From contig NC_089781.1 of the NCBI RefSeq assembly GCF_040412425.1, forward strand, positions 56,100,968 to 56,164,967: DNA of 64,000 bases, read 5' to 3'. The position numbers were made by a program, and so were the translations under genes. The notes under the pieces were generated by a model. The model saw only the letters and a program-made list of their open reading frames with translations, was not told the origin of the DNA and ran no database searches. The DNA comes from Macrobrachium rosenbergii. Lineage: Eukaryota > Arthropoda > Malacostraca > Decapoda > Palaemonidae. Numbering within the stretch: the first letter of the stretch is position 1; every line of letters begins with the position of its first letter. Below are positions 1 through 46,863 of this stretch, in pieces.

Positions 1-1253
1 TCTGCACCATCCTTTTGCATCATAGATGCATTGCTTTGTTGCACTGTACCTGGGTGCTGATGCCTCATATTGTGATGCTGACATTTTATAACGTGTTGCT
101 GGCTTGCTTTTTTCCTTTGTCTCATACTCTTTATTCCTTCCTTTATTTGTTTCATTTTTACTTTGATTTTTGATATGTATTTGATTTTGATTTTTGTTCT
201 TCATGGCAACAGGATGCATATACCTGCACTTTTTGTTGAATCTGCACCCTTTTCCTTCTCTCAAGTTTCTACGTATTTTTGGATGTAGATCGCTGCATTC
301 AACCTCATAGCGGTCTAGATATGCACATTTGCCATAAATCTCATAGTTGTGACATATATTGGGACGTTTGTAGTGACATCTTTCACCGAATCTGCAGTTC
401 CATCTTTTCAAAAGAGTGTAGACTATGTCTTTTTTTTCTTTTTTTTTCTTGCTCTTTCCCGTCAGTATGTATATTCGGGTACAACCTCTTTGGGATTTTA
501 TTTTGGGTTGTCATTTCATAGTTTATTTCTTCTTATATATGCTGTTGTATTGCCTCATATGTAGAGTCTGTGAGTCTCTCTGCATCCATACTCTTATCCT
601 GTTCTTTGTTTTCGTTATTGTTTTCAATCTCTTCAACCTTACTTTCTTCTATTTCGTTTTCCTCTTCTTTATCTTCCTCATTTTCTTCATCCTCGACTAT
701 TTGCACATTAAGTCTTCACTTAATAACATTGCCTATCCATATTAAACATTTTGAGCAAAATACTTTTGTGTCCTTTTTTTATTTTGCTGTACTTTTGCGC
801 ATATAGGGTGAGTTGGTACATGGCATGCACAGCATTTCCTTATCAGGTTTTGTGGATTTACAATGCTATACCACACATTACATAGATTGCATGCTTTAGG
901 CATTCGTTTTCCTATTGCATCAATCAGTATATTCACCATATTCACCTTGTTCATTTTCTTTGTTGGAATGTGTTGATTGATGTAGATTTTCTTTATAAGT
1001 CTCTTGATCACTTGGACTTTCTTTGGTATTCCTTCAATTATTTTCATTATGTTTTCTGCTGACTTGTTCCAGCTTGAAGGATCATATCCTTTCACTATGT
1101 CTGTGTATGTTTTTGCATCTTTTTGGTTGGAGTTGTTGTTGATCTCAACGATAAAAAACCCAGCTCCCTGCTTGCCAATTCATCATATTGGTAGTCTGCT
1201 AGGCAAGCTAAATTCCTTCATCTTTTGCCGCTGTTGTTACTTGAAGCTTCCAT
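1..1253 (-). pseudogene. LINE ORF1 of copy A (PHD-like plus CCCH zinc-finger protein), broken and partial
   Basis: ORF1 products of LINEs bind the element RNA in a ribonucleoprotein. The presumed ATG (complement of 1251-1253) opens MEASSNNSGKR and soon meets a stop and frameshifts. Around 742-960 the minus strand encodes CNLC, then CCAC, HPIC and, in a shifted frame, CSKC: a C4HC3 pattern as in PHD fingers. An acidic Glu/Asp-rich linker follows (about 470-740), then CCCH fingers to position 1. Copy-to-copy alignment by eye shows at least two frameshifts, so this copy is not functional. The PHD and CCCH calls rest on Cys/His spacing only. Confidence 0.7.
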
Positions 1254-1452
1254 GATGCTTAATTTTTAATATTTCACTCGAAAAAAACACCTCAATTGAC
1301 GCTTTATCATGCTACTCTGACTTTAATCTAATCACCGACAGTCTACAAACACTTCTAGCTATAGGTCACTTGCTAGTCATATGCTATACGCGTGAAATCG
1401 GGTTGATTATTCAGACTGAGAATGAATGTGTCTTCAGACCAAGAACGGGCAC
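1..1452 (-). mobile_element. LINE copy A, 5' part (ORF1 and 5' leader), cut by window edge
   Basis: This is the 5' end of a non-LTR retrotransposon on the minus strand; its ORF2 and 3' end lie outside the window to the left. Going 5' to 3' on the minus strand it holds a leader of about 200 bases (1254-1452), the presumed ORF1 start at 1253, a PHD-like finger, an acidic stretch and CCCH zinc fingers. It is the only copy that keeps the leader, so it is the best guide to the true 5' end. The leader joins satellite at about 1452, where the satellite resumes with GGAGAGGGGTGG. The same family recurs five more times in the window, which supports the boundaries. Confidence 0.85.
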
Positions 1453-2067
1453 AGGAGAGGGGTGGTGTTTAGGGACCACACTGTTTAAATTAGTTTTTTG
1501 GGGGAGAGGAGAGGGAAGTGGGAGGGAAGGTCCTGGGGAGAGGGGTGGTGTTTAAGGATACCACTCTTTAAACCTTTCTTTTAGGGGGGAGGGGGAGAGG
1601 AGAAGAAAGTGGGAGGTAATGTACCGGGGAGAGGGGTGGTGTTTAGGGACCACACTTTTTAAACCAGTTTTTTGGGGGAGGGGAGAGGAGAGGGAAGTGG
1701 GTGGCAAGGTCCTGGGAGGACGGGTGGTGTTTAGGGAGCACACTGTTTAAATGAGTTTTTTGGGGGAGGGGTAGAGGAGAGGGAAGTGGGAGGAAGGTCC
1801 TGGGGAGAGGGGTGGTGTTTAGGGACCACATTGTTTAAACTAGTTTTTTGGGGGAGGGGAGAGAGGACAGGGAAGTGGGAAGAAGGTCCCTGGGATAAGG
1901 GTGTTGTTAAGGACCACGCTGTTTAAACCAGTTTTTTGGGAGAGGGTGGAGAGGAGGGGGAAGAGGGAGGCAAGATCCTTCGCAGAGGGGTGGTGTTTAG
2001 GGACCACACTGTTTAACCTAAGGTTTTGGGGGGAGGGGAGAGGCGAAGGAAGTGGGAACAAGGTCCA
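1453..2067 (+). repeat. 89-bp satellite array, purine-rich strand on +
   Basis: About seven monomers lie between LINE copies A and B. A typical monomer reads GGGGAGAGGGGTGGTG, then TTTAGGGACCACACTG, then TTTAAACCAGTTTTTTGG, then a GGGGGAGGGGGAGAGGAGAG tract, then GGAAGTGGGAGGCAAGGTCC. The last two monomers (about 1850-2067) are nearly the same as 8314-8584, which marks a segmental duplication. Confidence 0.95.
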
Positions 2068-4230
2068 CATCGCCTTACAGACCTCACAGTTTTTTGGGTT
2101 GCCCCAGGTCACTCAGTGTGAGGCACCTTTTGTGTCTACCATAGAGTTGCTAATGCGTCTTCCGTTATATTTTGCACCTTCCAGTCTTGAATGGTCTGGG
2201 ACGCAGCTTAGATATTTGTCGACCTTATTCTTAAACACATCTACGCTCACTCCTGATATGTTCCTCAGATGAGCTGGTAACGCATTGAAGAGACGTTGAA
2301 TTATTGATGCTGGTGCGTAGTGGATTAATGTCCTGTGTGTTTTCCTTAGTTTTCCTGGTATAGTTTTGGGCACTATTAATCTACCTCTGCTTTCTCTTTC
2401 TTATGTTTTTAGCTCCATGATGTTTTTGGTGATCCCTTCTTTCTGTTTCCATGCCTGTATTATCATGTAGCTTTGTCTTCTCCTTTTGAAACTATATAAT
2501 TTTAAGAAATGTAGTCTTTCACAGTAGTCAAGGTTCTTAACTTCTTCTAGTCTAGCTGTAAAGGACCTTTGTACACTCTCTATTTGTGCAATATCCTTTT
2601 GGTAGTATGGGTACCACATCATACTGCAATATTCAAGTGGACTACCTGCATACGTTTTATAAAGCATAATCATGTGTTCGGTTTTTCTTGTTGTGAAGTG
2701 CCGGAACAACATTCCCATTTTTGCTTTGCATTTTGCCAATAGCATTGCTATTTGATCATTGCATATATTCTTATTCAACATCACACCAAGGTCTTTAACT
2801 GTTTCCTTATTTGTGAATGTCTCATTGTTAGGAGGTCCCCTATATGCATATATCATTCCTTCTTTATTACCATAATTTATTGATTCAAATTTATCAGAGT
2901 TAAATACCATCCTATTTACCTCTGCCCATTCATATATTTTGTTTAGGTCTCTTTGTAGCAAGTTCCTGTCTTCATCACAAGTAATTTCTCTACTTATTCT
3001 TGTGTCATCGGTGAAACTTTCACTACCAAGTCCTTAACATTAGTCTATGTCTGCAATCATAATAACAAACAGCAATGCAGCTAACACTGTACCTTGTGGC
3101 ACACCGGATATTACCGTAGCTTCATCCGATTTCTCATCGTTTGCAATCACTATCTGTTTTCTGTTTTGCAAAAATTCTTTTATCCAACTTCCTACTTTGT
3201 CCACAATATTATGTTTTCAAATTTTTTTTGCTAATATATTATGGTCTACCTTGTCAAATGCTATTGCAAAGTCTAGGTAAACCACATCTGTATCTTTTTC
3301 GTTTATCATAATTTTATATTTGTTTTCATAGTGGGCTAACAATTAGCTTTGTGTACTTTTTCCGGGTACAAAACCACGTTGTCCTATATTAAACAAACTA
3401 TTTTTCATTAAATGTTTCATTACATTTTTTTTTATTTCCCTTTTAAACACTTTCGTAATATGTGATGTTAGACTCACAGGCCTATAATTACTTGCCTCTA
3501 GTCTAGATGCACTTTGAAAATAGGGGTGATATATGCTAATTTATGTTCATCATAAATGTTGCCTGTATCTACACTTTGTCTTAATAATATTGCGAGCAGC
3601 TTTGCGATAGAATGAACTACTTTTTTTAAGAAAATGGCAGGTATGCCGTCTGGTCCTGCTGCTGATCCATTTTTAATTTCATTAATAGCCTGCACAATAT
3701 CGGCTTCATTAATATCTATGTCCGATAAATATCCACTATTTTTATCTCTTATTCCTGTATCATTATTTTCATTATCAATTCTAGGTGTAGATTCTCTCTT
3801 ATATCTTTCTGCTAATATGTTGCATTTTTGCCTTTTCTCATTTGTTAATCTCCCTTCGTTTCTTAGAGGGCCTATTTCTACTCTTCTTTTATTCATCTTT
3901 TTCTCGTATGAGTAGAACATTTTGGGGTTTTGTTTTATACTTTGTAGGGTCTTCTCTTCTAAGTCCCGTTTTTTATTTTCTTTTTACTGTATAATCTTTT
4001 GTTCTGCATTTTCTATCTTACTTTTTAGTTCCATCACTTTCTATGCATTCTTTTCTTTTGAAAGTGCTTTTTTCCACTTTCTGATTTTCTGGAACAAGAT
4101 CCTTCTGTCTCTTGGTATGCATGAATGGTGTTTGCTTTTCTTCTTTGGAATATTATATAATATAGCCATATTTACCTGTATATTATAACTTATGAATGTG
4201 TTTTCCTAGTCTTTGTTTAATTTTTCATTT

Positions 4231-4268
4231 CAGGCATTAAGGAGAGAGGGGCATATATGCCAGAAAAA
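4231..4268 (+). repeat. Left terminal inverted repeat of the DNA transposon
   Basis: It begins CAGGCATTAAGGAGAG directly after the ATTT target duplication at 4227-4230. It pairs with 6050-6090 read on the opposite strand. Confidence 0.85.
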
Positions 4269-4678
4269 TAAAAAAACATAAAACATTGCTCTAGTCATGC
4301 TCTTTCCAATGGTATGACTTATAAGCCCCTGCACCATTATCTATAAGAGCTATTCTAGTTTGAAAACTAATTTTTTTCCCTCCGAAAGATTATGGCCAAA
4401 ATTGGCTCATGCGGTTAATTAGAAAGGGACTTATACGACTTGACTCGGTAAAAGGATACGGAAATACACGCAGTGGCACTCGCGCCTTCTTGACGGCCTA
4501 TCAGGATGCCCGACTTGTGCTGCTTTGGCAGACTAGAGTAATTCCCGCCAATCAGTGGCTTCGTACCTTCACACTTTTAAAGTACTTCCAAGACCACGTG
4601 AATGTTTATAGGTTGCTTAGTGTATTGCACTCGTGTTTTTCACTGTTTTTTACGTAAATTCAGCGTGATTAGTCATAA

Positions 4679-4990
4679 TGGCTGATGATAGTGGTAGTTC
4701 TGTGCATGGGGAGATCCTGTGAGTGACCTTAAAACCCTTTGTCTGTACATAGCTCCTGTAAAGCAAGAGTATTTCCGGTAAATTATTGCTACACAGAGTA
4801 CCCCCCCCCCCACCTCCTGAGCCTGCACCTAAACAAGGGCAACCCAGTCGTCGTGAGCAAGATGAATTTGCAGAGGACGACGATGATGAGGTGCAGGAGA
4901 ATCTTTTTGACTACTAAGTCAAATCAGTGGGGGAGGGGGGAGGGAGGGGGTGGGGCCTTTGGAGCAGATGCAAGATCTTTGGGAGGGTGA
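4679..4990 (+). other. Possible exon remnants inside the DNA transposon
   Basis: An ATG at about 4679 opens a short reading MADDSGSSVHGEIL that runs into GTGAGT, a splice-donor-like sequence. About 80 bases later, after a pyrimidine-rich run, a Pro-rich and acidic peptide (PEPAPKQGQPSRREQDEF then EDDDDEVQENLFDY) can be read at about 4810-4915. Another GTGAGT follows at about 4988. The pattern looks like the start of a spliced gene with an acidic N-terminus, perhaps the relic of a transposase gene. There is no family match and the frames are short. Confidence 0.25.
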
Positions 4991-5282
4991 GTGTTATTAT
5001 CATTAATTATTTTGTTTTATTGCCATTTCATTAATGTTTTTGTCCTTGTTCATTCAATTTACAGTCTTATTTTTTTTCTAATGCTTAATCATTGCTTTAG
5101 GGTAAGCTTGTGTTTGTTGTTTTTGTGTTTGCTTGCATGCATGCAATTATTATTATCTTATTCCAATATTATTTTGTGGCGATCGATATGTTACAAAATA
5201 TTCTTATTTTACATTTAATTTTATAAAAATGTTTTTTTTTATTGTACTGTTTAATGTTGCATACTATGAAAATGCTGTTTGC

Positions 5283-5900
5283 CTGTGCTCCCTTAAGGCA
5301 AATTAGGGAATTCTTAGGGTTAGGTTATTAAAATGAAACAACGTAACAATAAAAAAATACCATTACTGTTATTTTTTTTTACTTAAAACTCTAAATTCCT
5401 TCCATTTTGCTATTTTGCGTATGATTTTACGAGGGCTTGTGCACCTGCAATACATATTAGGGACTTCTGAAGGTTGAGGGATTAAAATGAAACAACGTAA
5501 CAAGAAAAAATGCCTTTATTTTTATTATCTTTTTTTTTTCTCGTAAATTCCTTCCACTTTGCTATTGTGCGTATGTTTTGAAGCGCACTTGCGAATCTGG
5601 AATACAATTTTAGGACTTTCGGGGTAGTGGGGGTCGGAATGAAACAACTATCTACCAAAAAAGTCTTTATTTCTAAATTACAACATAGAAAAATATTCTT
5701 TTTTATTGTACTATTTTGCGTGTGTTTTTACGCGCGCATGCGCGCCAATAATGAAATAGTGCATTCTGAGGGATGCGAGGGGTTATGGTGAAATGATTTT
5801 ATAGCAAAAAAATCTTTATTGCCATTTTCAACCCCAAAAATATTAATGATTTTATTTTATTGTCTTCTTTGATGCACGCTTGCGTGCGCGCAAGCCATTC
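5283..5900. repeat. Four diverged 153-bp subterminal tandem repeats in the DNA transposon
   Basis: The motif AAATGAAACAACGTAAC or a variant occurs at 5331, 5484, 5637 and 5788, a period of about 153 bp. Each unit also carries a TATTTTGCGTATG-like stretch and a G-rich stretch. The third and fourth units carry GCGCGCATGCGCGC and TGCGTGCGCGCAAG palindromes, which may form hairpins or cruciforms. Subterminal arrays like this often bind transposase, but that role is an inference. Confidence 0.75.
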
Positions 5901-6049
5901 CTAAACAAATTTTGGGGCTCTGTAAAAATTCCAACATCATCACCTATAACTTGCCGCAAGTTACATCTTAATATCTTTAATGATTTTCCTGCTACAAACT
6001 TTTAACTTTAACCCTCTGTTTCTCCTTTTCTATGGCCTTTTTGTATTTT

Positions 6050-6090
6050 TTAAAAAATGGCATATTGGCCCCTATCTCCTTATACACCTG
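6050..6090 (-). repeat. Right terminal inverted repeat of the DNA transposon
   Basis: Read on the minus strand it begins CAGGTGTATAAGGAGATAGG and continues GGCCAATATGCCA. It abuts the ATTT duplication at 6091-6094. Confidence 0.85.
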
Positions 6091-6904
6091 ATTTATTTCT
6101 GACAATTTTATATTCTTACTATAGAAATTGCATTTTCCATATCCTTCCCACTTTTTCGTCTCTTGCTTATCTCTGTTTTCACTTGCTTTGGAATGGACTG
6201 TTAATTCTATGACATTATGGTCTAAACTACTCGTATTATACACTATTATTTCTTTAACATAGTTCACCCCATTCACAAATACTAGGTCTAAAATAGTTTC
6301 CTTTCTTGTTGGCAGGTGTTATATTTGCTGAATGTTATGTTCTAGTAGCATATCTAATAGATTTTCAAATTGTCTCTTATCTTCTACACTAGTATTACTC
6401 TCTTTTTTACATGCATAAATACAACCACAGTCTCCTATTCATTCTTTCCAATCTATGAAAGGAAAGTTAAAGTCTCCGGATAGGAGTATAATCCAGTCTT
6501 TGAGATTTCTACATATACCATCTAATTTCTCTATTATTATGTCAAACTCTTTAGTATTAAGGGGTCTGTATATTATGATGTTCACTAATTTTTCAGATTC
6601 AGATTCTACTGCAATTATTTCACATTCTGTGTTACTATATTTCTCACAGATTTTTCCTTCATTAACGTCTCTCCCATATATTGTGGTTCCCCCTTGATTC
6701 CTATTTTTTCTACCTGATCTATAAGTTTGGAAACTCTTTATCTGGCCGTCATTACCAGTCTCTTGGGAATACCATGTTTCACTTATATTCATTATATCTA
6801 TTTTTTCATTTTGGGTTAGTTCTAAGAACTCTATTTTTCTTTTTGAGTTACTCAAAACTAAACCTTGCACATCCATCACTATGATGGTTTGCTTGTTATC
6901 CCCA

Positions 6905-8265
6905 TTATATAATATGGATAATAATAAGGATTTTCCCATGCCTCTTTCCTGTTCTGATATGTTGTTTTTTCTTCATTTCCAGAAATTCAGACAAAACAAA
7001 AAAAAAAAACCAGCTTTTCCAAAATATTTGGTCTTCCATCTTCATATTTATTCATTTTGTGTATATATATATCTACATTTATCACCATATCTGCACCACC
7101 TCTTGGCATCATAAATGTATTGCTTGTTCCTTGCCCTGTATCTACAGTAGGTGCTGATGCCTCATATCGTGATGTTGACATTTCATAACGTGGTGTTGGC
7201 TTGCTTTTTTCCTTGGTCTCATACACTTTATTCCTTTCTTTATTTGTTTCATTTTTACTTTGATTTTTGCTATGTATTTGATTTTGATTTTCCTTCTTCA
7301 TGGCTACAGGATACATATATCTACATTTTTTGTTGAATCTACATCCTTTTCCATCTCTCAAGTTTTTGCATATTTTGTGATGTAGATCGCTGCATTCATC
7401 CTCATAGTCATCTAGATATGCACATTTGCCATAAATCTCATAGTTGTGACATATCTTGGGATACTTGTAGTGACATCTTTCACCGAATCTGCAATTCCCT
7501 CTTTTCAAAAGGGTGCAGACTGTGTCTCTCTTTTTTTTTTTTTTTTTTCTTGCTGTTTCCTGTCGGTATGTAGATTCGGGTACAACCTCTTTGGAATTTT
7601 ATTTTGTGTTGTCATTTCATAGTTTATTTCTTCGTATGTATGCTGTTGTATTGCCTCATATGTAGAGTCTATGAGATTCTCTGCAGCCATACTCTTATCC
7701 TGTTCTTTGTTTTCATTATTTTTTTCTATCTCTTCAATCTTATTTTCTTCTTCTATTCCATTTTCCTCTTCTTCCTCTTTCTCATCTTCTTCATCCTCTA
7801 CTATTTGCACATTAAGTCTTGACTTAATGACATTGTCTATCCATATTGGACATGTTGAGCAAAATACTCTTGTGTCCTTATTTTTATTTTGTTGGACTTC
7901 AGCACATGTAGGGTGAGTAGGTACGTGGCATGCATAGCATTTCCTTATCAGGTTTGTGGATTTACAATACCATACCAGACATTACATAGATTACATGCTT
8001 TAGGCATTCGTTTTCCTATTGCATCAATCAGTATATTCACGATATTCACCTTGTTCATTTTCTTTGTTGGAATGTGTTGATTGATGTAGATTTTCTTGAT
8101 AAGTCTCTTGATCACTTGGACTTTCTTTGGTATTCCTTCAAATATTTTCATTATGTTTTCTGCTGACTTGTTCCAGCTTGATGGGTTATATCCTTTCAAT
8201 ATTTCTGTGAATATTTTGCATCTTTTTGGTTGGAGTTGTTGGTGATCTCGTCGATAAGAAACCAA
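6905..8265 (-). pseudogene. LINE ORF1 (PHD-like plus CCCH fingers), copy B
   Basis: On the minus strand the order is: N-terminal segment KGYNPSSWNKSAENIMK (about 8150-8200), PHD-like cysteines CNLC, CYAC and CSTC (about 7830-8010), an Asp/Glu-rich linker (7690-7810), and CCCH fingers at 7330-7508 with C-x7-C-x5-C-x3-H spacing. The PHD histidine position reads PTYPTC here, where copies A and E have His, so the finger is probably damaged. The fourth CCCH finger is frameshifted, and the TAG that ends ORF1 in copies D, E and F reads TAT. Several breaks; not functional. Confidence 0.75.
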
Positions 8266-8584
8266 GGGGAGAAGGATGGTGTTTAGGGACCACACTGTTT
8301 AAACTAGTTTTTTGGGGGAGGGGAGAGAGGACAGGGAAGTGGGAGGAAGGTCCCTGGGATAAGGGTGTTGTTAAGGACCACGCTGTTTAAACCAGTTTTT
8401 TGGGGAAGGGTGGAGAGGAGGGGGAAGTGGGAGGCAAGATCCTGCGCAGAGGGGTGGTGTTTAGGGACCAAGAGTTTTTGGGGAGGGGGAGAGGAGAGGG
8501 AAGTAGGGGTGGTGTTTAGGGACCACACTGTTTAACCTAAGGTTTTGGGGGAGGGGAGAGGCGAGGGAAGTGGGAACAAGGTCC
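8266..8584 (+). repeat. Satellite block between LINE copies B and C
   Basis: It holds three to four monomers plus a half-size variant (about 8461-8520). It matches 1800-2067 closely, including shared oddities such as TTAACCTAAGGTTTTGG and GGGAACAAGGTCC. Confidence 0.95.
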
Positions 8585-8952
8585 ACATCGCCTTACAGAC
8601 CTCACAGTTTTTTCGGGTTGCCCCAGGTCACTCAGTGTGAGGCACCTTTTATGTCTACCATAGAGTTGCTAATGCATCTTCAGTTATATTTTGCACCTTC
8701 CAGTCTTGGATGGTCTGGGACGTAGCTTAGATATTTGTCGACCTCATTCTTAAACACATCTATGCTCACTCCTGATATGTTCCTCAGATGAGCTGGTAAC
8801 GCATTGAAGAGACGTTGCATTATTGATGCTGGTGTGTAGTGGGTTAATGTCCTGTGTGTTTTCCTTAGTTTTCCTGGTATAGTTTTGGGCACTATTAATC
8901 TACCTCTGCTTTCTCTTTCTTATGTTTTTAGCTCCATGATGTTTTTGGTGAT
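8585..8952 (-). mobile_element. LINE copy C, 3' fragment duplicated together with copy B
   Basis: This is about 370 bases of ORF2 C-terminus and 3' end, including RNISGVSIDVFKNEVDKYL and the ORF2 stop (complement of 8632-8634). Its junction with satellite (GGGAACAAGGTCCACATCGC) and the diverged tail are the same as in copy B. It therefore arose by duplication of the B locus and was not a separate insertion. The 5' side breaks off within ORF2 into about 17 bases of filler, then satellite. Confidence 0.9.
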
Positions 8953-18174: not shown

Positions 18175-18232
18175 TTACCTTACAGACCTTACCTTACAGA
18201 CCTTACAATTCGTTCGTGTTTCCACAGGTCCC

Positions 18233-21189: not shown

Positions 21190-21946
21190 GTCTCTTTCCT
21201 GTTCTGATATGTGTTCCTTTTCTTCATTTCCATAACTTCGTACATTAAAAAATCCAACTTTTCCAATATAGTTGACCTTCCATCTTCATATTTATTCATT
21301 TTGTGTTTGTACCTGCATCTATCTCCATATCTGCACCATCCTTTTGCATCGTAGATACATTGCTTTGTTGCATTGTACCTAGGTGCTGATGCCTCATATT
21401 GTGATGCTGACATTTTATAACATGTTGCTGGCTTGCTTTTTTCCTTTGTCTCATACTCTTTATTCCTTTCTTTATTTGTTTCATTTTTACTTTGATTTTT
21501 GATATGTATTTGATTTTGATTTTCGTTCTTCATGGCAACAGGATGTATATACCTGCACTTTTTGTTGAATTTGCACCCTTTTCCTTCTCTCAAGTTTCGA
21601 CATATTTTTGGATGTAGATCTCTGCATTTAACCTCAGCCGTCTAGATATGCACATTTGCCATAAATCTCATAGTTGTGACATATCTTGGGATGTTTGTAG
21701 TGACATCTTTCACCGCATCTGCAATTCCCTCTTTTTGAAAGAGTGCAGACTATGTCTTTCTTTTCTTTTTTTTCTTGCTCTTTCCCATCAATATGTATAT
21801 CCGGGTACAACCTCTTTGGGAATTTATTTTGGGTTGTCATCTCATAGTTTACTTCTTTATATGTATGCTGTTGTATTGCCTCATATGTAGAGTCTATGAG
21901 TTTCTCTGCATTCATACTCTTATCCTGTTCCTTGTATTCATTATTG
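21159..21946 (-). pseudogene. LINE ORF1, copy D, CCCH-finger half only
   Basis: It contains the acidic linker end, KDIVCTLSKRGNCRCGERCHYKHP (split here only by description: finger 1 with C-x7-C-x5-C-x3-H), finger 2 (CHNYEIYGKC), finger 3 (GKGCKFNKKCRYIHP) and finger 4 (CIYDAKGWCRYGDRCRYKH), ending NPYYYPY at 21159. The stop overlaps the start of ORF2 in another frame. A frameshift lies near 21600. The N-terminal PHD-like part is missing because of 5' truncation. Confidence 0.8.
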
Positions 21947-21965
21947 TAAGGTGTAAGGTAAGGTA

Positions 21966-22032
<67 letters not shown>

Positions 22033-22265
22033 CCCACACACTTTTCTTTCACTCTCCCCTTTTTTTAGATCCCATTTTTGTTTCGCTCTCCCTCTCTATC
22101 TTTATCTTTTTCCCTTGCCATTCTCTCTTAATGGTGGAAATGTAAATGATGAAAGAATCTTTCATCTGTTAAGTCAGCAGAAGAGAAGCCTTCCAGTGCG
22201 AAATATTAGTTGTAACTGTTCAGGTGCAAAAAGCGCAAGGCACTCCGCTCTTCAGAAAGACATGA
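21947..22265. repeat. (CT)n microsatellite with flanking unidentified sequence
   Basis: It starts with GTAAGGTGTAAGGTAAGG, which resembles the LINE 3' tail but in the opposite sense to copy D. A CT dinucleotide run of about 58 bases (21971-22028) follows, then about 235 bases of non-satellite sequence. The last part (about 22130-22265) has an open + frame with LNGGNVNDERIFHLLSQQ and GAKSARHSALQKDMKK, which I do not recognise. Satellite resumes at about 22266. Confidence 0.6.
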
Positions 22266-24734: not shown

Positions 24735-24776
24735 ACCTTACAGACCTTACAGTTCGTTCGGGTTGCCCCAGGTCCC

Positions 24777-27765
24777 TCAGTGTGAGGCACCTCTGATGGC
24801 TACCAGAGAATTGCTAATGCATCATCCGGTATATTTTGCATCTTCCAGTCTTGGATGGTCTGGGATGTATCTTAGATATTTTTCGAACTTATTCTTAAAC
24901 ACACCTACACTCACTCCTGATATGTTTCTCAGATGAGCTGGTAGCACATTGAATAGACGCTGCATTATCAATGTTGGTGCGTGGTGGATTAATGTCCTGT
25001 GTGCTTTCCTTAGTTTTCCTAGTATAGTTTTGGGCACTATTAATCTACCTCTGCTTGCTCTTTCTGATATTTTTAGCTCTATGATGTTTTCAGTAATTCC
25101 TTCTATTTCCATGCCTGGATAATTATGTAGCGTTCTCTTCTCCTTTCAAGACTATATAAATTTAAGAATTGCAGTCTTTCCCAGTAGTCAAGGTCCTTAA
25201 CTTCTTCTATTCTAGCTGTAAAGGACCTTTGTACACTCTCTATTTGTGCAATATCCTTTTGGTAGTGTGGGTACCATATTATATTGCAATATTCAAGTGG
25301 ACTAGGTACGTATGCTTTATAAAGCATAATCATGTGTTCGGCTTTTCTTGTTTTGAAGTGCCAGAACAACATTCCCATTTTTGCTTTGCATTTTGCCAAT
25401 ATTATTGCTATTTGGTCATTGCATAACATATTCCTATTCAACATCACACCAAGGTCTTTAACTCTTCCTTTTTTGTGATTGTCTCATTATTAGGTCCTTT
25501 ATATGCATATAGCATTCCTTCTTTATTACCATAATTTATTGACTCAAATTTATCAGAGTTAAATACCATCCTATTTACCTCTGCCCATTTATATATATTG
25601 CTTAGGTCTCTTTGTAGCGAGTTCCTATCTTCATCACAATTAATCTCTTTACTTATTCTTGTGTCATCAGCGAAACTTCGCACTACCAAGTCCTTAACAT
25701 TACTGTCTATGTCTGCAATCATAATCACAAACAGCAATGCAGCTAACACCGTACCTTGTGGCACACCGGGTATTACCTTAGCTTCATCCGATTTCTCATC
25801 GTTAGCAATCACTATCTGTTTTCTGTTTTGCAAAAATTCTTTTATCCATCTTCCTACTTTGTCTACAATGCTATGTTTTTTAATTTTTTTGCTAATATAT
25901 TATGGTCTACCTTGTCAAAAGCTTTTGCAAAGTCTAGGTAAACCACATCTGTATCTTTTTCATTTATCATATTTCTATATATGCTTTCGTGGTGGACTAA
26001 CAGTTGGGTTTGTGTACTTCTTCCTGGTACAAAACCATGTTATCCTATATTAAACAAACTATTTTTCATTAAATGTTTCATTATATATTTTTTCATTACC
26101 CTTTCATAAACTTTCATAATATGAGATGTCAGACTCACAGCCCTATAATTACGTGCCTCTAGTCTTGATCCACCTTTGAAAGTTGGGGTAATATACGCTA
26201 ATTAATGTTCATCATAATCTTGCCTGTATCTATACTTTGTCTTAATAATATTGCGAGCGGTTTTGTGGTTGAATGATCCACTTTCTTTAACAATATGGCA
26301 GGAACACCATCAGGTCCTGCTGCTGATCCATTTTTAATTTCATTAATAGCCTGCACAATATCGGCTTCAGTAATATCTATGTCCAATAAATATTCACTAT
26401 TTTCATCTCTTATTTCTGTATCATTATCTTCATTATCAATTCTAGGTGTGAATTCACTCATATCATTCTGCTAATATGCTACATATTTCCTTTTTTTCAT
26501 TTGTTAATCGCCCTTCAATTCTTAGAGGGCCTATTTCTACTCTTATTTTATTCATCTTTTTTGCATATGAGTAAAAAATTTTGGGGTTTTGCTTGATATT
26601 TTTTAGGGTCCTTTCTTCAAGGTCCTGATTTTCTTTTTCTTTTGACTGTATAATCTTTTGTTCTGCATTTTCTATCTTACTTTTTAGTTCCATCACTTTC
26701 CATGCATTCTTTTCTTTTGCAAGACCTTTTTTCCACTTTCTGATTTTCTGGAACAAGATCCTTCTGTCTCTTGGTATGCGTGACTGATGTTTACTTTTCT
26801 TCTTCAGTATATATTTTTCCACTATTTCCTCTAATATTTTATATAATATATCCGTATTTACCTGTATATTATCACTTACGAATATGTTTTTCCAGTCTTT
26901 GTTTAATTCTTCATTTATTTTTGACCAATTTATATTTTTACTATAAAAATTATATTTTCCATATCCTTCCCATTTTTTCTTCTGTTGCTTATCACTGTTT
27001 TTATATGCTTTGGAACGGACTGTTAATTCTATGACATTATAGTCTGAAATACTCGTATTATACACTATTATTTCTTTAACATAGTTCACCTCGTTCACAA
27101 ATACTAGGTCTAAAATATTATCCTTTCTTGTTGGTAGGTGATTTATTTGCTGAATGTTATGTTCTAGTAGCATATCTAATAGCTTTTCAAATTGCCTCTT
27201 ATCTTCTGCGCTACTATTACTCTCCTTTTTATATGTACAAATACAACCACAGTCTCCTATTCGTTCTTTCCATTCTACGAAAGGAAAGTTAAAGTCTCCG
27301 GATAGGAGTATAGTCCAGTCTTTGTGATTTCTACATATATCATCCAATTTGTCAATTATTATGTCAAACTCTTTAGTATTAGGGGGTCTGTATATTACAA
27401 TGTTTACTAATTTTTCAGATTCAAATTCTACTGCTATTAATTCACATTCTGTGTTACTATATTTCTCACAGATTTTTGCTTGATTTACGTCTCTCCCATA
27501 TATCACGGTTCCCCCTTGATTCCTATTTTTTCTATCTGATCTATAAGTTTGGAAACCCTTTATCTGATCATCATTACCAGTCTCTTGTGAGTACCAGGTT
27601 TCACTTATATTCATTATATCTATTTTTTTCAGTTTGGGTTAGTTCTTCTAAGAACTCTATTTTTCTTTTTGAGTTACTCGAAACTGAACCCTGTGCATTC
27701 ATCACTATGATGGTTTGCGCTTTATCCCCATTATCTAATATGGGTAATAATAAGGATTTTTCCAT
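24777..27765 (-). pseudogene. LINE ORF2 (endonuclease-reverse transcriptase), copy E
   Basis: The endonuclease domain is open over 383 codons (26463-27614) with NISETW, GGTVIYGR, VIYRPPN, LSGDFNFPFVEW and SDYNVIELTV; SDY replaces the SDH of copy F, so the catalytic His is changed. A frameshift near 27630 separates it from the MEKS start at 27765. The RT is in pieces: GPDGVPAILLKKV (about 26310), SGVPQGT-like PGVPQGTVLAALLF (about 25760) and SFADDTRIS (about 25670), the F-x-DD catalytic motif. The thumb region follows at 25103-25447. A 2-base deletion near 26461 is shared with copy F. No RNase H domain is seen. Confidence 0.88.
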
Positions 27766-28794
27766 GTCTCTTTCCTGCTCTGATATGTTGTTCTTTTCTT
27801 CATTTCCATAACTTCGGACATTAAAAAATCCAACTTTTCCAAAATAGTTGATCTCCTACCTTCATAATTATTCATTTTGTGTTTGTACCTGCACCTATCT
27901 CCATATCTGCACCATCCATTTACATCGTAGATACATTGCTTTGTTGCACTGTACCTGGGAGCTGATGCCTCATATCGTGGTGCTAACATTTCATAAAGTG
28001 GTGCCGGCTTGCTTTTTTTCTTCGTCACATACTCTTTATTCTTTCCTTTGTTTGTTTCATTTTTACTTTGATTTTTGATATGTATTTGCTTTTGATTTTC
28101 GCTCTTCATGACAACAGGATGCATGTATCTGCATTTTTTGTTGAATTTGCAACCTTTTCCTTCTTTCAGATTCCGACATACTTTTGGATGTAAATCGCTG
28201 CATTCAACCTCATAGCCATCTAGATATGCACATTTGCCATAAATTTCATAGTTGTGACATATCTTGGGATGTTTGTAGTGACATCTTTCACCGAATCTGC
28301 AATTTCCTCTTTTCAAAAGAGTGCAGACTGTGTCCTTTTTTCTTTTTTTTCTTGCTTTTTCCCTTCAATATGTATATCCGGGTACAGCCTCATTGGGATT
28401 TTTTTTTGCGTTGTCATTTCATAGTTTATTTCTTCGTATGTATGCTGTTGTATTGCCTCATATGTAGAGTCTATGAGTTTCTCTGCATCCATACTCTTAT
28501 CCTGTTCTTTGTTTTCATTACTGTTTTCTATCTCTTCAGTCTTATTTTCTTCTATTTCGTTTTCCTTTTCTTCCTCATCCTCAGTTTCATCATCCTCGAC
28601 TATCTGTACATTAAGTCTTGACTTAATAACATTGTCTATCCATATTAGACATGTTGAGCAAAATACTTTTGTGTCTTTTTTTTATTTTGCTGTACTTCGG
28701 TGCATGTAGGATGAGTTGGAACATGGCATGCACTGCATTTCCTTATCAGGTTTTGTGGATTTACAATTATATACCACACATTACATAGATTGCA
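27735..28794 (-). pseudogene. LINE ORF1 (four CCCH fingers), copy E, 5'-truncated
   Basis: The CCCH part is the cleanest in the window (27735-28330). Finger 1 is CTLLKRGNCRFGERCHYKH, finger 2 CHNYEIYGKC with CSDLH, finger 3 CRNLKEGKGCKFNKKC with RYMH, and finger 4 CIYDVNGWCRYGDRCRYKH. Spacing is C-x7/8-C-x5-C-x3-H, except finger 2 with nine residues in the middle. The protein ends RKETWKNPYYYPY at 27735, overlapping the ORF2 start. An acidic linker lies at 28460-28620, followed upstream by remains of the PHD-like finger. A frameshift lies near 28330-28390. Such fingers usually bind RNA, which fits an ORF1 role. Confidence 0.82.
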
Positions 28795-29348
28795 GGGGTG
28801 GTGTTGAGGGACCACACTGTTTAAACTAGTTTTTTCGGAGGGGGAGAGGAGAGGGAAGTGGGAGGAAGTTCACTGGGAGATTTGTGGTGTTTAGGGACCA
28901 CACTGTTTAAACCATTTTTTGGGGGGTGAGGAGAGGGAAGTGGAAGACAATTTATTGGAAAGAGGGGTGGTGTTTAGGGACGACCACACTGTTTAAAATA
29001 GTTTTTTGGGGAGGGGGAGGAGAGGGTAGTAGGAGGAAGGTCACGATGATAGTGGTGGTGTTTAGGGACCACACTATTTAAACCAGTTTTTTGGGGGTGA
29101 GGAGAGGGAAGTAGGAGGGAAGGTCCCAAGGAGAGGGGTGATGTTTAGGGACCACAGTTTTTAAATCAGTTTTTTTTGGGGAGAGGGGGAGAATAGAGGG
29201 AAGTGGGAGGTAAGGTCCCCAGGAGAGGGGTGGTGTTTAGGGACCACACTGTTTAACAAATTTTTGGGGGGAGGGCTGAGAGGAGAGGGAAGTGGGTGGT
29301 AAGGTTGCTTGGAGAGGGGTGGTGTTTAGGAACCACATTGTTTAAACC
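28795..29348 (+). repeat. Satellite, last purine-rich-on-+ block before the flip
   Basis: About six monomers in the same orientation as everything to the left. The block ends in TTGTTTAAACC at 29348, where orientation reverses. Confidence 0.95.
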
Positions 29349-29350
29349 AC
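29346..29350. other. Satellite inversion junction
   Basis: A monomer reading ...GTTTAAACC is joined directly to ACCCCTCTCCCCGGGACC of the opposite orientation. Three bases (CCA) can be assigned to either side, so the junction has short microhomology and no spacer. Confidence 0.85.
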
Positions 29351-32327
29351 CCCTCTCCCCGGGACCTTGCCTCCCACTCCCCACACCTCTTCCCCCTCCC
29401 CCAAAAAACTGGTTTAAAAAGTGTGGTCCCTAAACATCACCCCTCTCCCCAGGAACTTCCCTCTCACTTCCCTCTGCTCCCCCCCCATTCCCCAAAAAAC
29501 TGGTTGAAACAGTGTCATCCATAAACACCACCCCTCTCCTGGGACCTTGTGTCCACTTTCGTCTCCTCTCCCTCTCCCATAAAAAACTGGTTTAAACAGT
29601 GTGGTTCCGAAACACCACCCCACTCACCGAGATCTTGCCTCCCAATTCCCTCTCCTCACGCCCAAAAACAGGTTTAAACAGTGTGGTCCCTAAACACCAC
29701 CACTCTCCGGTGACCTTGTCTCCCACTTCCCTCTACTCACTCACTCCCACAAAAAATTGGTTTAAACAGTGTGGTCCCTAAACAACACCCGTTTCCACAA
29801 TACCTTGCATCCTACTTACCTCTCCTTACCCCCAAAAAACTGTTTTAAACAGTGTGGTCCTAAACATCACCACTCTCCCCATGACCTTGCCTTCCACTTC
29901 CCTCTCCTCTCCCCCTACCCCAAAAAACTGGTTTAAACAGTGTGGTCCCTAAACACCACCCCTCCTCCTGGGCCCCAGGAGATGTTGCCTTGAACTTCCC
30001 TTTCCTCACCAACAAAAAACTGGTTTAAACAGTGTGGTCCCTATACATCACCACTCTTCCCAGGACCTTGCCTCCCACTTCCCTCCCCTCTTCCCCTCCA
30101 CCAAAATACTGGTTTAAACAGTGTGGTCCCTAAACATCACCCCTCTCTCCAGAACCTTCCATCCCACTTCCCTCTCCTTTCTCCCCTCACACAAAAAAAT
30201 GGTTTAAATCGTGTGGTCCCTTAACACCACCCCTCTCCCCTTGGACCTTGCCTCCCACTTCCCTCTCCTCTCCCGTTTCCCAAATACTGGTTTAAATGGT
30301 GGGGTCCCTAAACACCACACATCTCCCTGAGACCTTGCCTCCCTCTTCTGTCTCCTCACTCACCAAAAAACTGGTTTAAACAGTGTGGTCACTAAACACC
30401 ACTTCTTTCCCCGGGACCATACCTCCCACTTCCCACTCCCCTCCCCCTACACAAAAAACTGGTTTAAAGAGTGTGGTCCCTAAACACCACCTCTCTCCCA
30501 AGGACCTTGTCTCCCATTTCCCTATCCTCTCATCCCTCCCCCGAAAAATTGTTTTAAACGGTGTGGTCCCTAAACACCACCCCTCTCCCTGGAACCTTGC
30601 CTCCCACTTCCTTCCCCTCTCCCCCAAAAAACTGGTTTAAACAGAGTGGTCCCTAATCACCACCCCTCTCCCTGGACATTGACTCCTTCCCTCTCCTCTA
30701 CCCCTGCCACCAAAAATGGTTTAAACAAACTAGTCCCTAAACACCATCCATCTGCCGGGACCTTGCCTCCCACTTTCCTCTCCTCTCCTCCTTCCCCCAA
30801 AACTGGTTTAAACTATGTAGAACCTAAATAACACCCCTCTCCCCTGCACCTTGCCTCCACTTCCCTCTCCTCTCCCCCTCCACCAAAAAACTGGTTTAAA
30901 CAGTGTGGTCCCTAAACACCACCCCTCTCCAAGGGACCTTCCCTTCCACTTCCCTCTCCCCTGCCACTCCCCAAAAACTGGTTTAAACAGTGTGGTCTGT
31001 AAGCACAACCCCTCTCCCAGGGACCATGCCTCCCATTTTGCTGTCCACTCCCCATGCCCCAAAAAGCCAGTTTAAATAGTGTGGTCCCTAAACACCACTC
31101 TTATCCCCAGACCCTTCCCTCCCACTTCCCTCTCTTCTCCCCCTGCCTCAAAAAACTGGTTTAAACAGAGAGGTCCCAAAACCCCACCCCTCTGCCCGGG
31201 ACTTTGCTTCCCACTTCCCTCTCCTCTCCCCTTCCCCCCAAAAACCAGTTCAAACAAAGGTCCCTAAAAACCAATCCTCTCCCTGGACCTTGCCTCCCAC
31301 TTCCCTCTCCTCTTCTCCCTCCCCCAAAAAAGTGGTTTAAACAGTGTGGCCCCTAAAAACCACCACTCTCTCTGGAACGTGCCTCCCACTTCCTTCTCCT
31401 TTCCCCCTCCCCTAGATAACTGGTTTAAATAGTGTGGCCCCTAAAAACCACCACCCTCCCCAGAACCTTGCCTCCTACTTCCCTCTTCTCTCCCCCTCAC
31501 CCAAAAACTGGTTTAAACAGTCTGGTACCTAAATACTATCCGTCTCATTGGGACTTGGCCTCCCATTTCCCTCTCCTTTCCCCCTCCCCCAAAAAACTGG
31601 TTTAAACAGTGTGGTGCCTAAACACCGCCCGTCTCCCGGGTACCTTGCTCCACACCTTCCTCCCCTCTACCCCAAAAATCTGGTTTAAACAGTGTGGTCC
31701 CTAAACACCACCACTCTCCCGGGACCTTCCCTGCAATTTCCCTCTCCTCTTCCCCTCCCAAAAAACTGGTTGAACAGTATGGTACCAAAACACCACCTCT
31801 TTTCCTGGGACCTTGCCTCCCACTTCCCTTTCCTCTCCCCCTCCACCAAAATCTGGTTTGAACAGTGTGGCCCCTAAACACCACTCCTCTCCCTGGGAAC
31901 TTACCTCCCACTTCCCTCTCCTCTCCCCCTCCCCCAATAAACTGGTTTAAATAATGTGGTCCCTAGACACCACCCCTCTCCCGGAGACCTTGCCTCCCAC
32001 TTTCCTCTCCTCTCCCTCTCCCCCCAAAAAACTGGTTTAAACAGTGTGGTACCTAAACACCACCTGTTTCCCAGAGAACTTCCTTCCCACCTCCCTCTCC
32101 TCTCCCCCGAAAAACTGGTTTAAACAGAGTGGTCCCTAAACTGCACCCCTCTCCCCAGGAACTTACCTCTCACTTCCATCTCCTCTCCCCCCACCCCCAA
32201 AAAAACTGGTGTAAACATTATGGTCCTAAACACCACCCCTCTCCCTTGGACCTTCCCTCCCACTTCCCTCTCTTCTCTCCTTCCCCGAAAAACTTTATAA
32301 ACAGTATCGTACCTAAACACCACCCTT
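29349..32327 (-). repeat. Satellite array, pyrimidine-rich strand on +
   Basis: About 33 monomers of the same 89-bp unit reversed: AAAAAACTGG, TTTAAACAGTGTGG, TCCCTAAACACCACC, CCTCTCCCCGGGACCTTGCC, TCCCACTTCCCTCTCC. No gene is present. Confidence 0.95.
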
Positions 32328-32854
32328 GCCACAATTACGAGATCTATGGCAAATGTGCATATCTACATGGCTATGAGGAGGAATGCAGCGATCTATATCC
32401 AAAAATATGTAAAAACTGGAGAGAAGGAAATGGATGTAGGCTTAATAAAAAATGTAGGTATATGCATCCTGTAGCCATGAAGAATAAAAATCAAAATCAA
32501 ATACATATAAAAAATCAAGGTAAAAATGAAGCAAATAAAGAAAGGAACAAAGATCATATGATGAAGGAAAAAAGCAAGCCAACAACACATTACGAAATGT
32601 CAGCACCACGATATGAGGCATCAGCACCTAGATATAGTGCAAGGAACAAGCAATGTATCTACAATGCTAGGGGATGGTGCAGATATGGAGATAAATGCAA
32701 GTATATGCACAAAATGAATAAATATGAAGATGGAAGGTCAAATATAATGGAAAAGTTGGATTTTTTAATGTACAAATTTCTGGAAATGAAGAAAAGAACA
32801 ACATGTCAGAACAGGAAAGAGACATGGGAAAATCCTTATTATTACCCATATTAG
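32328..32854 (+). pseudogene. LINE ORF1, copy F, C-terminal part
   Basis: The open frame enters from satellite and encodes most of CCCH finger 2 (from CHNYEIYGKC), finger 3 (GNGCRLNKKCRYMH), a Lys/Asn-rich linker and finger 4 (CIYNARGWCRYGDKCKYMH). It ends RKETWENPYYYPY with the stop at 32852-32854. A predicted helical tail (IMEKLDFLMYKFLEMKK) lies after finger 4. The frame is intact from the truncation point to the stop but has no start of its own. It overlaps ORF2 by 31 bases. Confidence 0.82.
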
Positions 32855-35826
32855 ATAATGGAGATAACACGCAACCCATCATAGTGATGAATGCGCAGGG
32901 TTTAGTTTCGAGTAACTCAAAAAGAAAGATAGAGTTCTTAGAAGAACTAACCCAAAATGGAAAAATAGAAATAATGAATATAAGTGAAACCTGGTATTCC
33001 CAAGAGACTGGTAATGATGACCAGATAAAGGGTTTTCAAACTTATAGATCAGGTAGAAAAAATAGAAATCAAGGGGGAACCGCAATGTATGGGAGAGACG
33101 TAAATCAAGCAAAAATCTGTGAGAAATATAGTAACACAGAATGTGAATTAAAAGAGGTAGAATTTGAATCTGAAAAATTAGTAACATTGTAATATAAAGA
33201 ACCCCTAATATTGAAGAATATTAAAGAGTTTGACATAATAATTGACAAATTGGATGATATATGTAGAAATCACAAAGACTGGACTATACTCCTATCTGGA
33301 GACTTTAACTTTCCTTTTGTAGGATGGAAAGAATGAATAGGAGACTGTGGTTGTATTTATACACAAAAAAAAGAGAGTAATAGTAGCGCAGAAGATAAGA
33401 GGCAATTTGAAAAGCTATTAGATATGCTACTAGAACATAACATTCAGCAAATAAATCACCTGCCAACAAGAAAGGATAATATTTTAGACCTAGTATTTGT
33501 GAACGAGGTGAACTATGTTAAAGAAATAATAGTGTATAATACGAGTATATCCGACCATAATGTCATAGAAATAACAGTCCATTCCAAAACACATGAAAAC
33601 AGAGATAAGCAAGAGACGAAAAAATGGGAAGGATATGGAAAATACAATTTCTATAGTAAGAATATAAATTGGTCAAAAATAAATGAAGAATTACACAAAG
33701 ACTGGGAAAACATATTTGTAAGTGATAATATACAGGTATATACAGATACATTGTATAAAATATTAGAGGAAATAGTGGAAAAATATATACCGAAGAAAAA
33801 AAGTAAACATCAGTCACGCATACCAAGAGACAGAAAGATCTTGTTCCAGAAAATCAGAAAGTGGAAAAAGGTCTTGCAAAAGAAAAGAATGCATGGAAAG
33901 TGATGGAACTAAAAAGTAAGATAGAAAATGCGGAACAAAAGATTATACAGTAAAAAGAAACTGAAAAATGGGACCTAGAAGAAAAGACCCTACAAAATAT
34001 CAAGCAAAACCCAAAAATTTTTTACTCATATGCAAAAAAGATGAATAAAATAAGAGTAGAAATAGGCCCTCTAAGAATTGAAGGGCGATTAACAAATGAA
34101 AAAAAGGAAATATGTAACATATTAGCAGAAAGATATGAGTGAATTTACACCTAGAATTGATAATGAAGATAATGATACAGAAATAAGAGATGAAAATACT
34201 GAATATTAATCGGACATAGATATTACTGAAGCTGATATTGTGCAGGCTATTAATGAAAGTAAAAATGGATCAGCAGCAGGACCAGATGGTGTACGTGCCA
34301 TTTTGTTAAAGAAAGTGGTTCATTCAATCGCAAAGCCGCTAGCAATATTATTAAGACAAAGTATAGATACAGGCAAGATTTATGATGAGCATAAATTAGC
34401 ATATATTACCCTTATTTTCAAAAGTGGATAAAGACTAGAGGCAAGTAATTATAGGCCTGTGAGTCTGACATCTCATACTATGAAAGTTTATGAAAGGGTA
34501 ATGAAAAAAAATATAATGAAACATTTAATGAAAAATAGTTTGTATAATATGGGACAACATGGTTTTGTACCGGGAAAAAGTACACAAACCCAGCTGTTAG
34601 TCCACCATGAAAGCATATATAAAAATATGATAAACGAAAAAGATACAGATGTGGTTTACCTAGACTTTGCAAAAGCTTTTGACAAGGTAGACCATAATGT
34701 ATTAGCAAAAAAAATTAGAAAACATAACATTGTGGACAAAGTAGGAAGATGGATAAAAGAATTTTTACAAAACAGAAAACAGATAGTGATTGCAAACGAT
34801 GCGAAATCGGATGAAGCTACGGTAATATCCGGTGTGCCACAAGGTACGGTGTTAGCTGCATTGCCGTTTGTGATTATGATTGCAGACATAGACAGCAATG
34901 TTAAGGACTTGGTAGTGAGAAGTTTCACCGATGACACAAGAATAAGTAGAGAAATTACTTGTGATGAAGATAGCAACTCGCTACAAAGAGACCTAAACAA
35001 AATATATAAATGGGCAGAGGTAAATAGGATGGTATTTTACTCTGATAAATTTGAATCAATAAACTATGCTGATAAAGAAGGAATGCTATATGCATATAAA
35101 GGACCTAATAATGAGACAATCACAAATAAGGGAGCAGTTAAAGACCTTGGTGTGATGTTGAATAGGAATATGTTATGCAATGATCAAATAGCAATACTAC
35201 TGGCAAAATGCAAAGCAAAAATGGGAATGTTGTTCCGGCACTTCAAAAAAAGAAAAGCCGAACACATGATATTGCTTTATAAAACGTATGTACCTAGTCC
35301 ACTTGAATGTTGCAATATAATATGGTACCCACACTACCAAAAGGATATTGCACACATAGAGAGTGTACAAAGGTCATTTACAGCTAGAATAGAAGAAGTT
35401 AAGGACCTTGACTACTGGGAAAGACTACAATTCTTAAATTTATATAGTCTTGAAAGGAGAAGAGAAAGCTACATGATAATACAGGCATGGAAACAGAAAG
35501 AAGGAATTACCGAAAACATCATGGAGCTAAAAATATCAGAAAGAGCAAGCAGAGGTAGATTAATAGTGTGCAAAACTATACCAGGAAAACTAAGAAAAGC
35601 ACACAGGACATTAATCCACCACTCACCAGCATCTATAATGCAGCGTCTATTCAATGTGCTACCAGCTCATCTGAGGAACATAATAGGAGTGAGCGTAGAT
35701 TTGTTTAAGAATAAGTTCGACAATTATCTAAGATGCATCCCAGACCATCCAAGATTGGAAGATGCAAAATATACTAGAAGATGCATTAGCAATTCTCTGG
35801 TAGACATCAGAGGTGCCTCACACTGA
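32824..35826 (+). pseudogene. LINE ORF2 (endonuclease-reverse transcriptase), copy F, about 1000 codons with breaks
   Basis: The chosen start is MGKS at 32824, which also has an ATG in copies B and D. An ATG seven codons upstream exists only in this copy. Endonuclease: SETW with Glu near residue 55, GDFN near 160, SDHN near 244. Reverse transcriptase: GPDGVRAILLKK, RPVSLTSHTMKVYER, HGFVPGKSTQTQLL, YLDFAKAFDKVDH with Asp near 614, SGVPQGT, and FTDD near 701-704. The C-terminal part is open from 34459 to 35826 and ends RGASH. Breaks: in-frame stops at 33190, near 33336 and at 34429, a one-base deletion near 33880, and a 2-base deletion near 34135 that together restore the frame. No RNase H or C-terminal zinc knuckle is seen. 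Confidence 0.9.
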
Positions 35827-35849
35827 GGGACCTGGGGCAACCCGAACGA

Positions 35850-35879
35850 ACTGTAAGGTCTGTAAGGTCTGTAAGGTCT
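35850..35879 (+). repeat. LINE 3' tail, three TGTAAGGTC units
   Basis: Three perfect 9-bp units follow GGGGCAACCCGAACGAAC and meet the satellite directly. The same tail is seen reversed at copies D and E. Short tandem 3' tails in place of poly(A) are known for CR1/L2-like and other non-LTR elements. Confidence 0.9.
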
Positions 35880-46830: not shown

Positions 46831-46863
46831 TGCTGCTCCTGACCGCTCTCCACCGGGCTGGGG

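What the first reader, a model, noticed from the sequence alone, without database searches (positions are those of the whole stretch)
1..35879. LINE that inserts at one place and in one orientation within an 89-bp satellite monomer
All LINE copies lie with their sense strand on the pyrimidine-rich satellite strand, even though the array flips at 29348. On the CT strand the 5' junctions fall in one short stretch of the monomer: copy A after CACCACCCCTCTCC, B after CACCATCCTTCTCCCC, E after CACCACCCC, F after CACCACCC. The 3' junctions of B/C and D resume at GGACC and of E at TCTCCCCG; only F resumes about 35 bases further on. Copies B and E interrupt the monomer almost cleanly. This looks like sequence-specific target use, comparable in kind to R-type elements in rDNA or to LINEs known to target microsatellites. 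C shares its junction with B by duplication, and A shows only its 5' junction, so there are about four to five independent events.
Basis: partly seen in the sequence, partly recalled or inferred. Interest (0 to 1): 0.9.

Follow-up and report, generated by a model that had tools for sequence, protein, structure and literature searches.

The report
LINE that targets one satellite site
A jumping gene of the LINE type has landed at least five separate times at nearly the same spot and in the same direction inside a short tandemly repeated DNA unit, which suggests that it aims for that repeat, although only a survey of the whole genome could prove it.

Summary
An 89-bp CT/GA satellite is interrupted by six segments of one LINE family. 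One segment (C) duplicates copy B's 3' end, leaving five independent events. All five run sense along the CT strand although the array inverts at 29345/29346. Three of four known 3' junctions fall in the same stretch; F resumes about 30-35 bp further on.

The copies have different 5' ends, and 5' flanks no more alike than random monomers, so they are not one amplified insertion. 3' ends carry (CTGTAAGGT)n tails; B, D and E are near-blunt.

The element has an APE-type endonuclease, an RT and an ORF1 with CCCH fingers and a weakly supported PHD-like finger, which points to the CR1/L2 lineages (no tree made). Best reading: target-primed insertion with a satellite-site preference, looser than R1/R2. 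Plant L1-CS in Cuscuta satellite CUS-TR24 is a close published precedent. The decisive genome-wide test could not be run: 13 identical requests did not complete.

The parts
1..1453 (-). LINE copy A, 5' part only (continues beyond the window); longest 5' end of the family here
   Evidence: 5' junction at consensus 13
2067..8265 (-). LINE copy B, 5' truncated, split by a 1.86-kb insert at about 4231-6086
   Evidence: junctions at consensus 15 and 16
8585..8957 (-). LINE segment C: duplicate of the 3' end of B, with a breakpoint at its 5' end; not an independent event
18175..22272 (-). LINE copy D with a non-LINE 5' head (21948-22270)
   Evidence: junctions at consensus 15-17 and 16
24735..28793 (-). 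LINE copy E, 5' truncated, near-blunt insertion
   Evidence: junctions at consensus 8-9 and 7-8
32326..35879 (+). LINE copy F, 5' truncated, on the other side of the array inversion
   Evidence: junctions at consensus 7-8 and about 37-42
1454..2066 (-). 89-bp satellite, CT strand is minus
8266..8584 (-). 89-bp satellite between B and C, alignable with part of 1454-2066
8958..18174 (-). 89-bp satellite
22273..24734 (-). 89-bp satellite
28794..29345 (-). 89-bp satellite up to the inversion point
29346..32325 (+). 89-bp satellite, CT strand is plus
35880..45342 (+). 89-bp satellite, degenerate between 42367 and 43517
27735..28364 (-). ORF1 part of copy E with three CCCH-finger matches
   Evidence: PF00642 E 1.2e-14
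26463..27638 (-). APE-type endonuclease part of copy E
   Evidence: PF14529 E 2.5e-11
34432..35826 (+). reverse transcriptase part of copy F
   Evidence: PF00078 E 1.1e-25

Best explanation
A LINE, probably of the CR1/L2 lineages of the Jockey superfamily, inserts by target-primed reverse transcription and prefers a short stretch (ACCACCCCTCTCCCC up to GGACC on the CT strand) of an 89-bp satellite. Its APE-type endonuclease nicks the GA strand in or next to this stretch, and the freed 3' end primes cDNA synthesis from the RNA's (CTGTAAGGU)n tail. Because it is always the GA strand that is nicked, every copy reads sense along the CT strand. Second-strand cleavage is at nearly the same position, giving near-blunt insertions (B, D, E) or a deletion (F). 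Shown: junction positions, orientation, independence of the copies, tails, EN and RT domains. Inferred: the strand nicked, the priming, and what confers the preference (the endonuclease, or tethering by the fingers of ORF1).
For: 5' junctions of 5 of 5 independent events within consensus 7-17 of 89 (P about 0.001 uniform, 0.005 within CT tracts). Same orientation in 5 of 5 across an array inversion. 3 of 4 independent 3' junctions in the same stretch. Five different 5' ends; identities of 85-94% between the five where they overlap. The 10 pairs of 240-bp 5' flanks are 0.746-0.798 identical against 0.748 (SD 0.059) for 400 random pairs drawn from 55 satellite segments, so they do not look like segmental duplicates of one insertion. 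Tail repeat at all five 3' ends seen, counting C: 7 matches against 0.03 expected. EN and RT domains.
Against: Only five events in one window. F's 3' junction lies about 30-35 bp away. Junctions scatter over 11 positions, a zone and not a nucleotide-exact site. The zone is one of the less conserved parts of the monomer (11-bp window starting at position 7 ranks 86th of 89). Enrichment in satellite over other DNA within the window is not significant (about 0.06, from sizes and the absence). Copies outside the satellite elsewhere in the genome could not be sought.
Confidence: 0.68

Rival explanations
1. The endonuclease has a general preference for a short CT-rich or structured motif that also occurs elsewhere. 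The satellite merely offers many such sites, and the element is not satellite-specific.
For: Junctions scatter over 11 bp; F's 3' junction lies in a second CT tract with a similar word (TCTCC). Clustering within CT tracts alone is less striking (0.005 against 0.001). Satellite-over-other enrichment in the window is about 0.06.
Against: The monomer has a longer CT tract (consensus about 19-56), yet none of the five 5' junctions lies in it.
Confidence: 0.2
2. One insertion was amplified with the satellite by unequal exchange, and later deletions made the different 5' ends.
For: Such exchange happened at least once here: C duplicates B's 3' end and spacer.
Against: 5' flanks of A, B, D, E and F are no more alike than background; 5' ends all differ while the satellite position stays the same; the tails and 3' target positions differ between B, D, E and F.
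Confidence: 0.05
3. Coincidence: five random insertions happened to fall close together on the monomer.
For: n is five and the pattern was found by inspection.
Against: P about 0.001 to 0.005 for position alone, with a further 1/16 for orientation.
Confidence: 0.07

Closest known systems
L1-CS LINEs in satellite CUS-TR24 of Cuscuta europaea (PMC8091179, passages read)
   Same: A LINE lineage associated with one satellite, frequently in one relative orientation, with insertions at preferred places of the monomer; the loci also show inversions and segmental duplications.
   Different: A plant L1-lineage element with AT-rich target motifs (TTCTA, TTTCAA) and shifts of about 13-16 bp between 5' and 3' ends due to target duplication. 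Here the site is CT/C-rich, near-blunt or deleted, and the element looks CR1/L2-like. The plant association rests on 97,860 scored L1-CS elements, this case on five events.
R1/R2, TRAS/SART and other target-specific LINEs (PMC4640811, passages read; details of R1, TRAS and SART recalled)
   Same: Repeated target, fixed orientation, insertion by a LINE.
   Different: Those cut at an exact place in rDNA, telomeric or RNA-gene repeats (recalled). PMC4640811 says that most reported target-specific families belong to early-branched, Tx1 or R1 clades; this one appears CR1/L2-like and its site is a zone of about 11 bp.
YURE LINEs in U2-derived satellite of Ciona (PMC4640811, passages read)
   Same: Animal LINEs with some preference for a satellite repeat.
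   Different: Related to the U2-gene-targeting Utopia families, with a satellite derived from an RNA gene. No RNA-gene origin was seen here (no Rfam match at gathering thresholds).
CR1/L2 lineages with PHD-containing ORF1 (PMC4120745, passages read)
   Same: APE endonuclease plus RT, and an ORF1 with a PHD-like finger; that paper suggests that PHD may take part in general targeting of the genome.
   Different: CCCH fingers in ORF1 are not among the ORF1 types in the passages read, and no satellite target is mentioned in them.

Membership tests
APE-type LINE (non-LTR retrotransposon) | apurinic-like endonuclease followed by reverse transcriptase | tested here: met
   PF14529 E 2.5e-11 and PF00078 E 1.1e-25; EN and RT motifs in copies
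APE-type LINE (non-LTR retrotransposon) | 5' truncation of copies with a shared 3' end | tested here: met
   five different 5' ends and one 3' tail type
CR1/L2 lineages (Jockey superfamily) | RT/APE phylogeny | not tested
   no named CR1, L2 or Jockey reference proteins at hand; of the 120 homologues listed (of 4020 found) two carry an organism name, both krill
CR1/L2 lineages (Jockey superfamily) | PHD finger in ORF1 (found in many, not all, subgroups) | tested here: inconclusive
   C-x2-C-x15-C-x2-C-x4-H-x2-C-x14-C-x2-C in two relatives, P0121 and P0122; Pfam PHD spans 1-47/47 but only at E 0.11 and 0.27, below cut-off; the window's own 158-aa piece scores PHD_2 E 0.054 and PHD E 0.25, below cut-off, and the joined piece of copy B gives no PHD row at E up to 1
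R1 and Tx1/L1 clades | C-terminal CCHC zinc knuckle in ORF2 (recalled) | tested here: not met
   no C-x2-C-x4-H-x4-C in three frames of six LINE pieces; the copies are frameshifted, so a broken motif could be missed
RLE-type target-specific LINEs (R2, R4, NeSL, CRE) | restriction-like endonuclease instead of APE | tested here: not met
   APE-type endonuclease present
Site-specific LINE | insertions at one position and orientation of a repeated target | tested here: met
   as a zone of 11 bp for 5 of 5 5' junctions, one orientation
Site-specific LINE | few or no copies outside the target | not tested
   The genome search did not complete
Cuscuta L1-CS type | AT-rich L1-like cleavage motif and target duplication of about 13-16 bp | tested here: not met
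   site is CT/C-rich and near-blunt or deleted; none of the five events lies at the monomer's GTTTAAAC word, which occurs 148 times in 24,455 bp

The most novel reading that the evidence does not exclude
A CR1/L2-lineage LINE of an animal that lives almost only in one satellite: its ORF1, with a PHD-like (chromatin-reading) finger and CCCH (RNA-binding type) fingers, tethers it to the satellite, and its endonuclease cuts one strand in one zone of the monomer. It would be a satellite counterpart of R1/R2, arisen in a lineage not known for target specificity.
Probability: 0.3. Interest if true: 0.68.

Novelty: new variant of a known kind. Interest (0 to 1): 0.5.

Why it matters
If genome-wide data agree, target specificity would have arisen in a LINE lineage for which it is not usually reported, aimed at a satellite and not at an RNA gene, telomere or microsatellite. 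It would give a natural system for asking whether PHD and zinc-finger domains of ORF1 choose the target, a role suggested for PHD but without functional studies in LINEs according to PMC4120745 (2014; passages). It would also show how LINEs use satellites as a refuge and break them up.

Tried and rejected
Tail-to-target base pairing: the tail unit matches the GA strand beside the insertion site at 7 of 9 bases, but 290 of 3000 shuffled tail units reach that too, so it is not used as evidence. Target zone as the most conserved part of the monomer: rejected, it is among the less conserved. Matches in other collections: a 36-base satellite pattern in viral contigs, the RT protein in viral contigs, genome contigs and phages: none. 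RNA-gene origin: no Rfam match at gathering thresholds in the window. Structure of the ORF1 relative P0121: mean pLDDT 36.7, not used. LINE relatives beyond 36000 in the window: none among 62 and 15 tblastn rows kept at E up to 1e-3; rows were kept for only 5 of the fetched homologues. A word count used a mistyped word and was replaced. The global B-C 3'-flank identity (0.61) speaks against duplication if taken alone; an indel of about 55 bp lowers it, and the duplication rests on the alignment. The script, meant to re-score F's 3' start, failed; F's 3' junction is therefore given as a range. Two Pfam matches to unrelated families (NMT E 0.0025, CIS_TMP E 0.0069) are below cut-off and taken as chance.
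Full report
WHAT IS THERE. The window holds an 89-bp satellite (CT-rich on one strand) at 1454-2066, 8266-8584, 8958-18174, 22273-24734, 28794-29345 (CT strand minus) and 29346-32325, 35880-45342 (CT strand plus), with a degenerate part at 42367-43517. Between the blocks lie segments of one LINE family: A 1-1453, B 2067-8265, C 8585-8957, D 18175-22272, E 24735-28793, F 32326-35879. Where the five independent copies overlap they are 87-94% identical, except A-F with 85% over 357 bp; B-C is 97%.

JUNCTIONS. Each flank was aligned to the satellite consensus and read directly. Counted in bases consumed from ACCACCCCTCTCCCCGGGACC, the 5' junctions are A 13, B 15, D 15 (17 if a following AG is counted), E 8-9, F 7-8. 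The 3' junctions are B 16, D 16, E 7-8 and F 42 by the aligner; F's first satellite bases TCTCCTCTCCCCC also equal consensus 37-49, so 37-42 is fair. A's 3' junction lies outside the window. So 5 of 5 5' junctions and 3 of 4 3' junctions fall in the same stretch. E is near-blunt; B loses about one base and has a 6-base filler (CGATGT); D is within a base or two of blunt; F lost about 30-35 bases of target. None has a long target duplication.

CHANCE. Five uniform points within 11 of 89 positions: 0.001 by simulation and formula; with only 54 CT-tract positions allowed: 0.005. The same orientation in 5 of 5 adds 1/16. D was entered as 17; with 15 the span shrinks to 9. Dropping one or two events, the same formula gives 0.004-0.03. 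Against this: n is five and the pattern was found by inspection; the zone is among the less conserved parts of the monomer (11-bp window from position 7 ranks 86th of 89). Enrichment in satellite over other DNA within the window is not significant: 24,455 bp of satellite with five events against 18,658 bp beyond 45342 with none gives about 0.06.

INDEPENDENCE. C and its spacer duplicate B's 3' end and spacer: LINE part 97% over 362 bp, same CGATGT|GGACC junction, alignable spacers. C's 5' end at consensus 83 is taken as the breakpoint of that duplication, so C is not counted. A, B, D, E and F have different 5' ends. The ten pairs of 240-bp 5' flanks have identities of 0.746-0.798; 400 random pairs drawn from 55 phase-matched satellite segments give a mean of 0.748, SD 0.059. 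Descent from one insertion would need repeated deletions that stop at the same satellite position, which is implausible.

THE ELEMENT. The endonuclease is PF14529 (E 2.5e-11), the RT PF00078 (E 1.1e-25), and ORF1 has three CCCH-finger matches. A, B and E are broken by frame changes, and D and F have split reading frames. ORF1 relatives without such breaks exist: P0121 (477 aa, 75% identical) and P0122 (481 aa, 70%). Both carry a C4HC3 array of PHD-like spacing upstream of the CCCH fingers, but Pfam's PHD models score it below their cut-offs (E 0.11 and 0.27; 0.054 to 0.25 for a piece of copy B; no row for the joined piece of B), and a structure prediction was too poor to help. No C-terminal CCHC knuckle was found in six pieces, and copy F's 464-aa piece matches only the RT family. 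By elimination and by ORF1 make-up this suggests the CR1/L2 lineages, but no tree with named references was made. Two of the 120 listed relatives are named as krill proteins, 47% and 45% identical, so a crustacean host is a guess. The 3' end is a (CTGTAAGGT)n tail in all five 3' ends seen, counting C; the doubled unit, with up to two mismatches, occurs 7 times in the window against 0.03 expected.

MECHANISM. The anatomy fits target-primed reverse transcription: 5' truncation, a constant 3' end with tail repeats, one orientation. Sense along the CT strand means that the GA strand primed (inference from the known mechanism). On that strand the nick would follow GGTCC (B, D) or GGGGAGA (E), with F's at a similar word ending GGAGA in the second CT tract. 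What confers the preference is open: the endonuclease may read the site, or ORF1's fingers may tether the complex. PMC4120745 (passages) suggests that PHD fingers of such LINEs may take part in targeting and knew of no functional study of them in LINEs.

WHAT IS KNOWN. [quoted passage not shown] So the idea of a LINE aimed at a place in a satellite monomer is already in print. The present case differs in likely lineage, in a CT/C-rich instead of AT-rich site and in lacking a long target duplication. PMC4640811 (passages) places most reported target-specific families in early-branched, Tx1 and R1 clades and reports YURE elements in a U2-derived satellite. PMC3124438 on a shrimp genome (passages) lists CR1 elements but mentions target-specific insertion only for R1. 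PMC4700185 gave one passage, on telomeric elements. In my ten library searches, judged by titles and abstract openings, I saw no CR1/L2-type LINE with a satellite-site preference; the library covers open-licence papers only.

NOT DONE. The viral, phage and prokaryote collections that I searched gave no relatives, as expected for a eukaryotic repeat.

Noticed in passing
4231-6086: A 1.86-kb insert in LINE copy B with imperfect inverted ends (CAGGTGTATAAGGAGA / CAGGCATTAAGGAGA) and AAAT at both sides, which looks like a DNA transposon; it holds a tandem repeat of about 152 bp.
   Followed up: partly
21948-22270: 5' head of copy D that is not LINE: a T-run, unrelated sequence, (GA)30, then ACCTTACCTTACCTTACACCTTAC, the antisense of the LINE tail repeat. 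It may come from template switching at the end of cDNA synthesis. No BLAST match elsewhere in the window, no Rfam match.
   Followed up: partly
29345-29346: The satellite array flips head to head without inserted sequence; real inversion or assembly join is not known.
   Followed up: no
1454-2066 and 8266-8584: Duplicated LINE 3' end plus spacer (B and C), evidence of unequal exchange within the array.
   Followed up: yes
46796-49480: Reading frames of a Gypsy-type LTR retrotransposon starting about 1.5 kb after the satellite ends; one frame matches RT and RNase H families, an integrase-like part after it is recalled from its look only.
   Followed up: no
52786-53662: Tandem duplication of a 435-bp unit, two copies at 99% match.
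   Followed up: no
42367-43517: Degenerate satellite whose monomers are interrupted by short AT-rich stretches.
   Followed up: no
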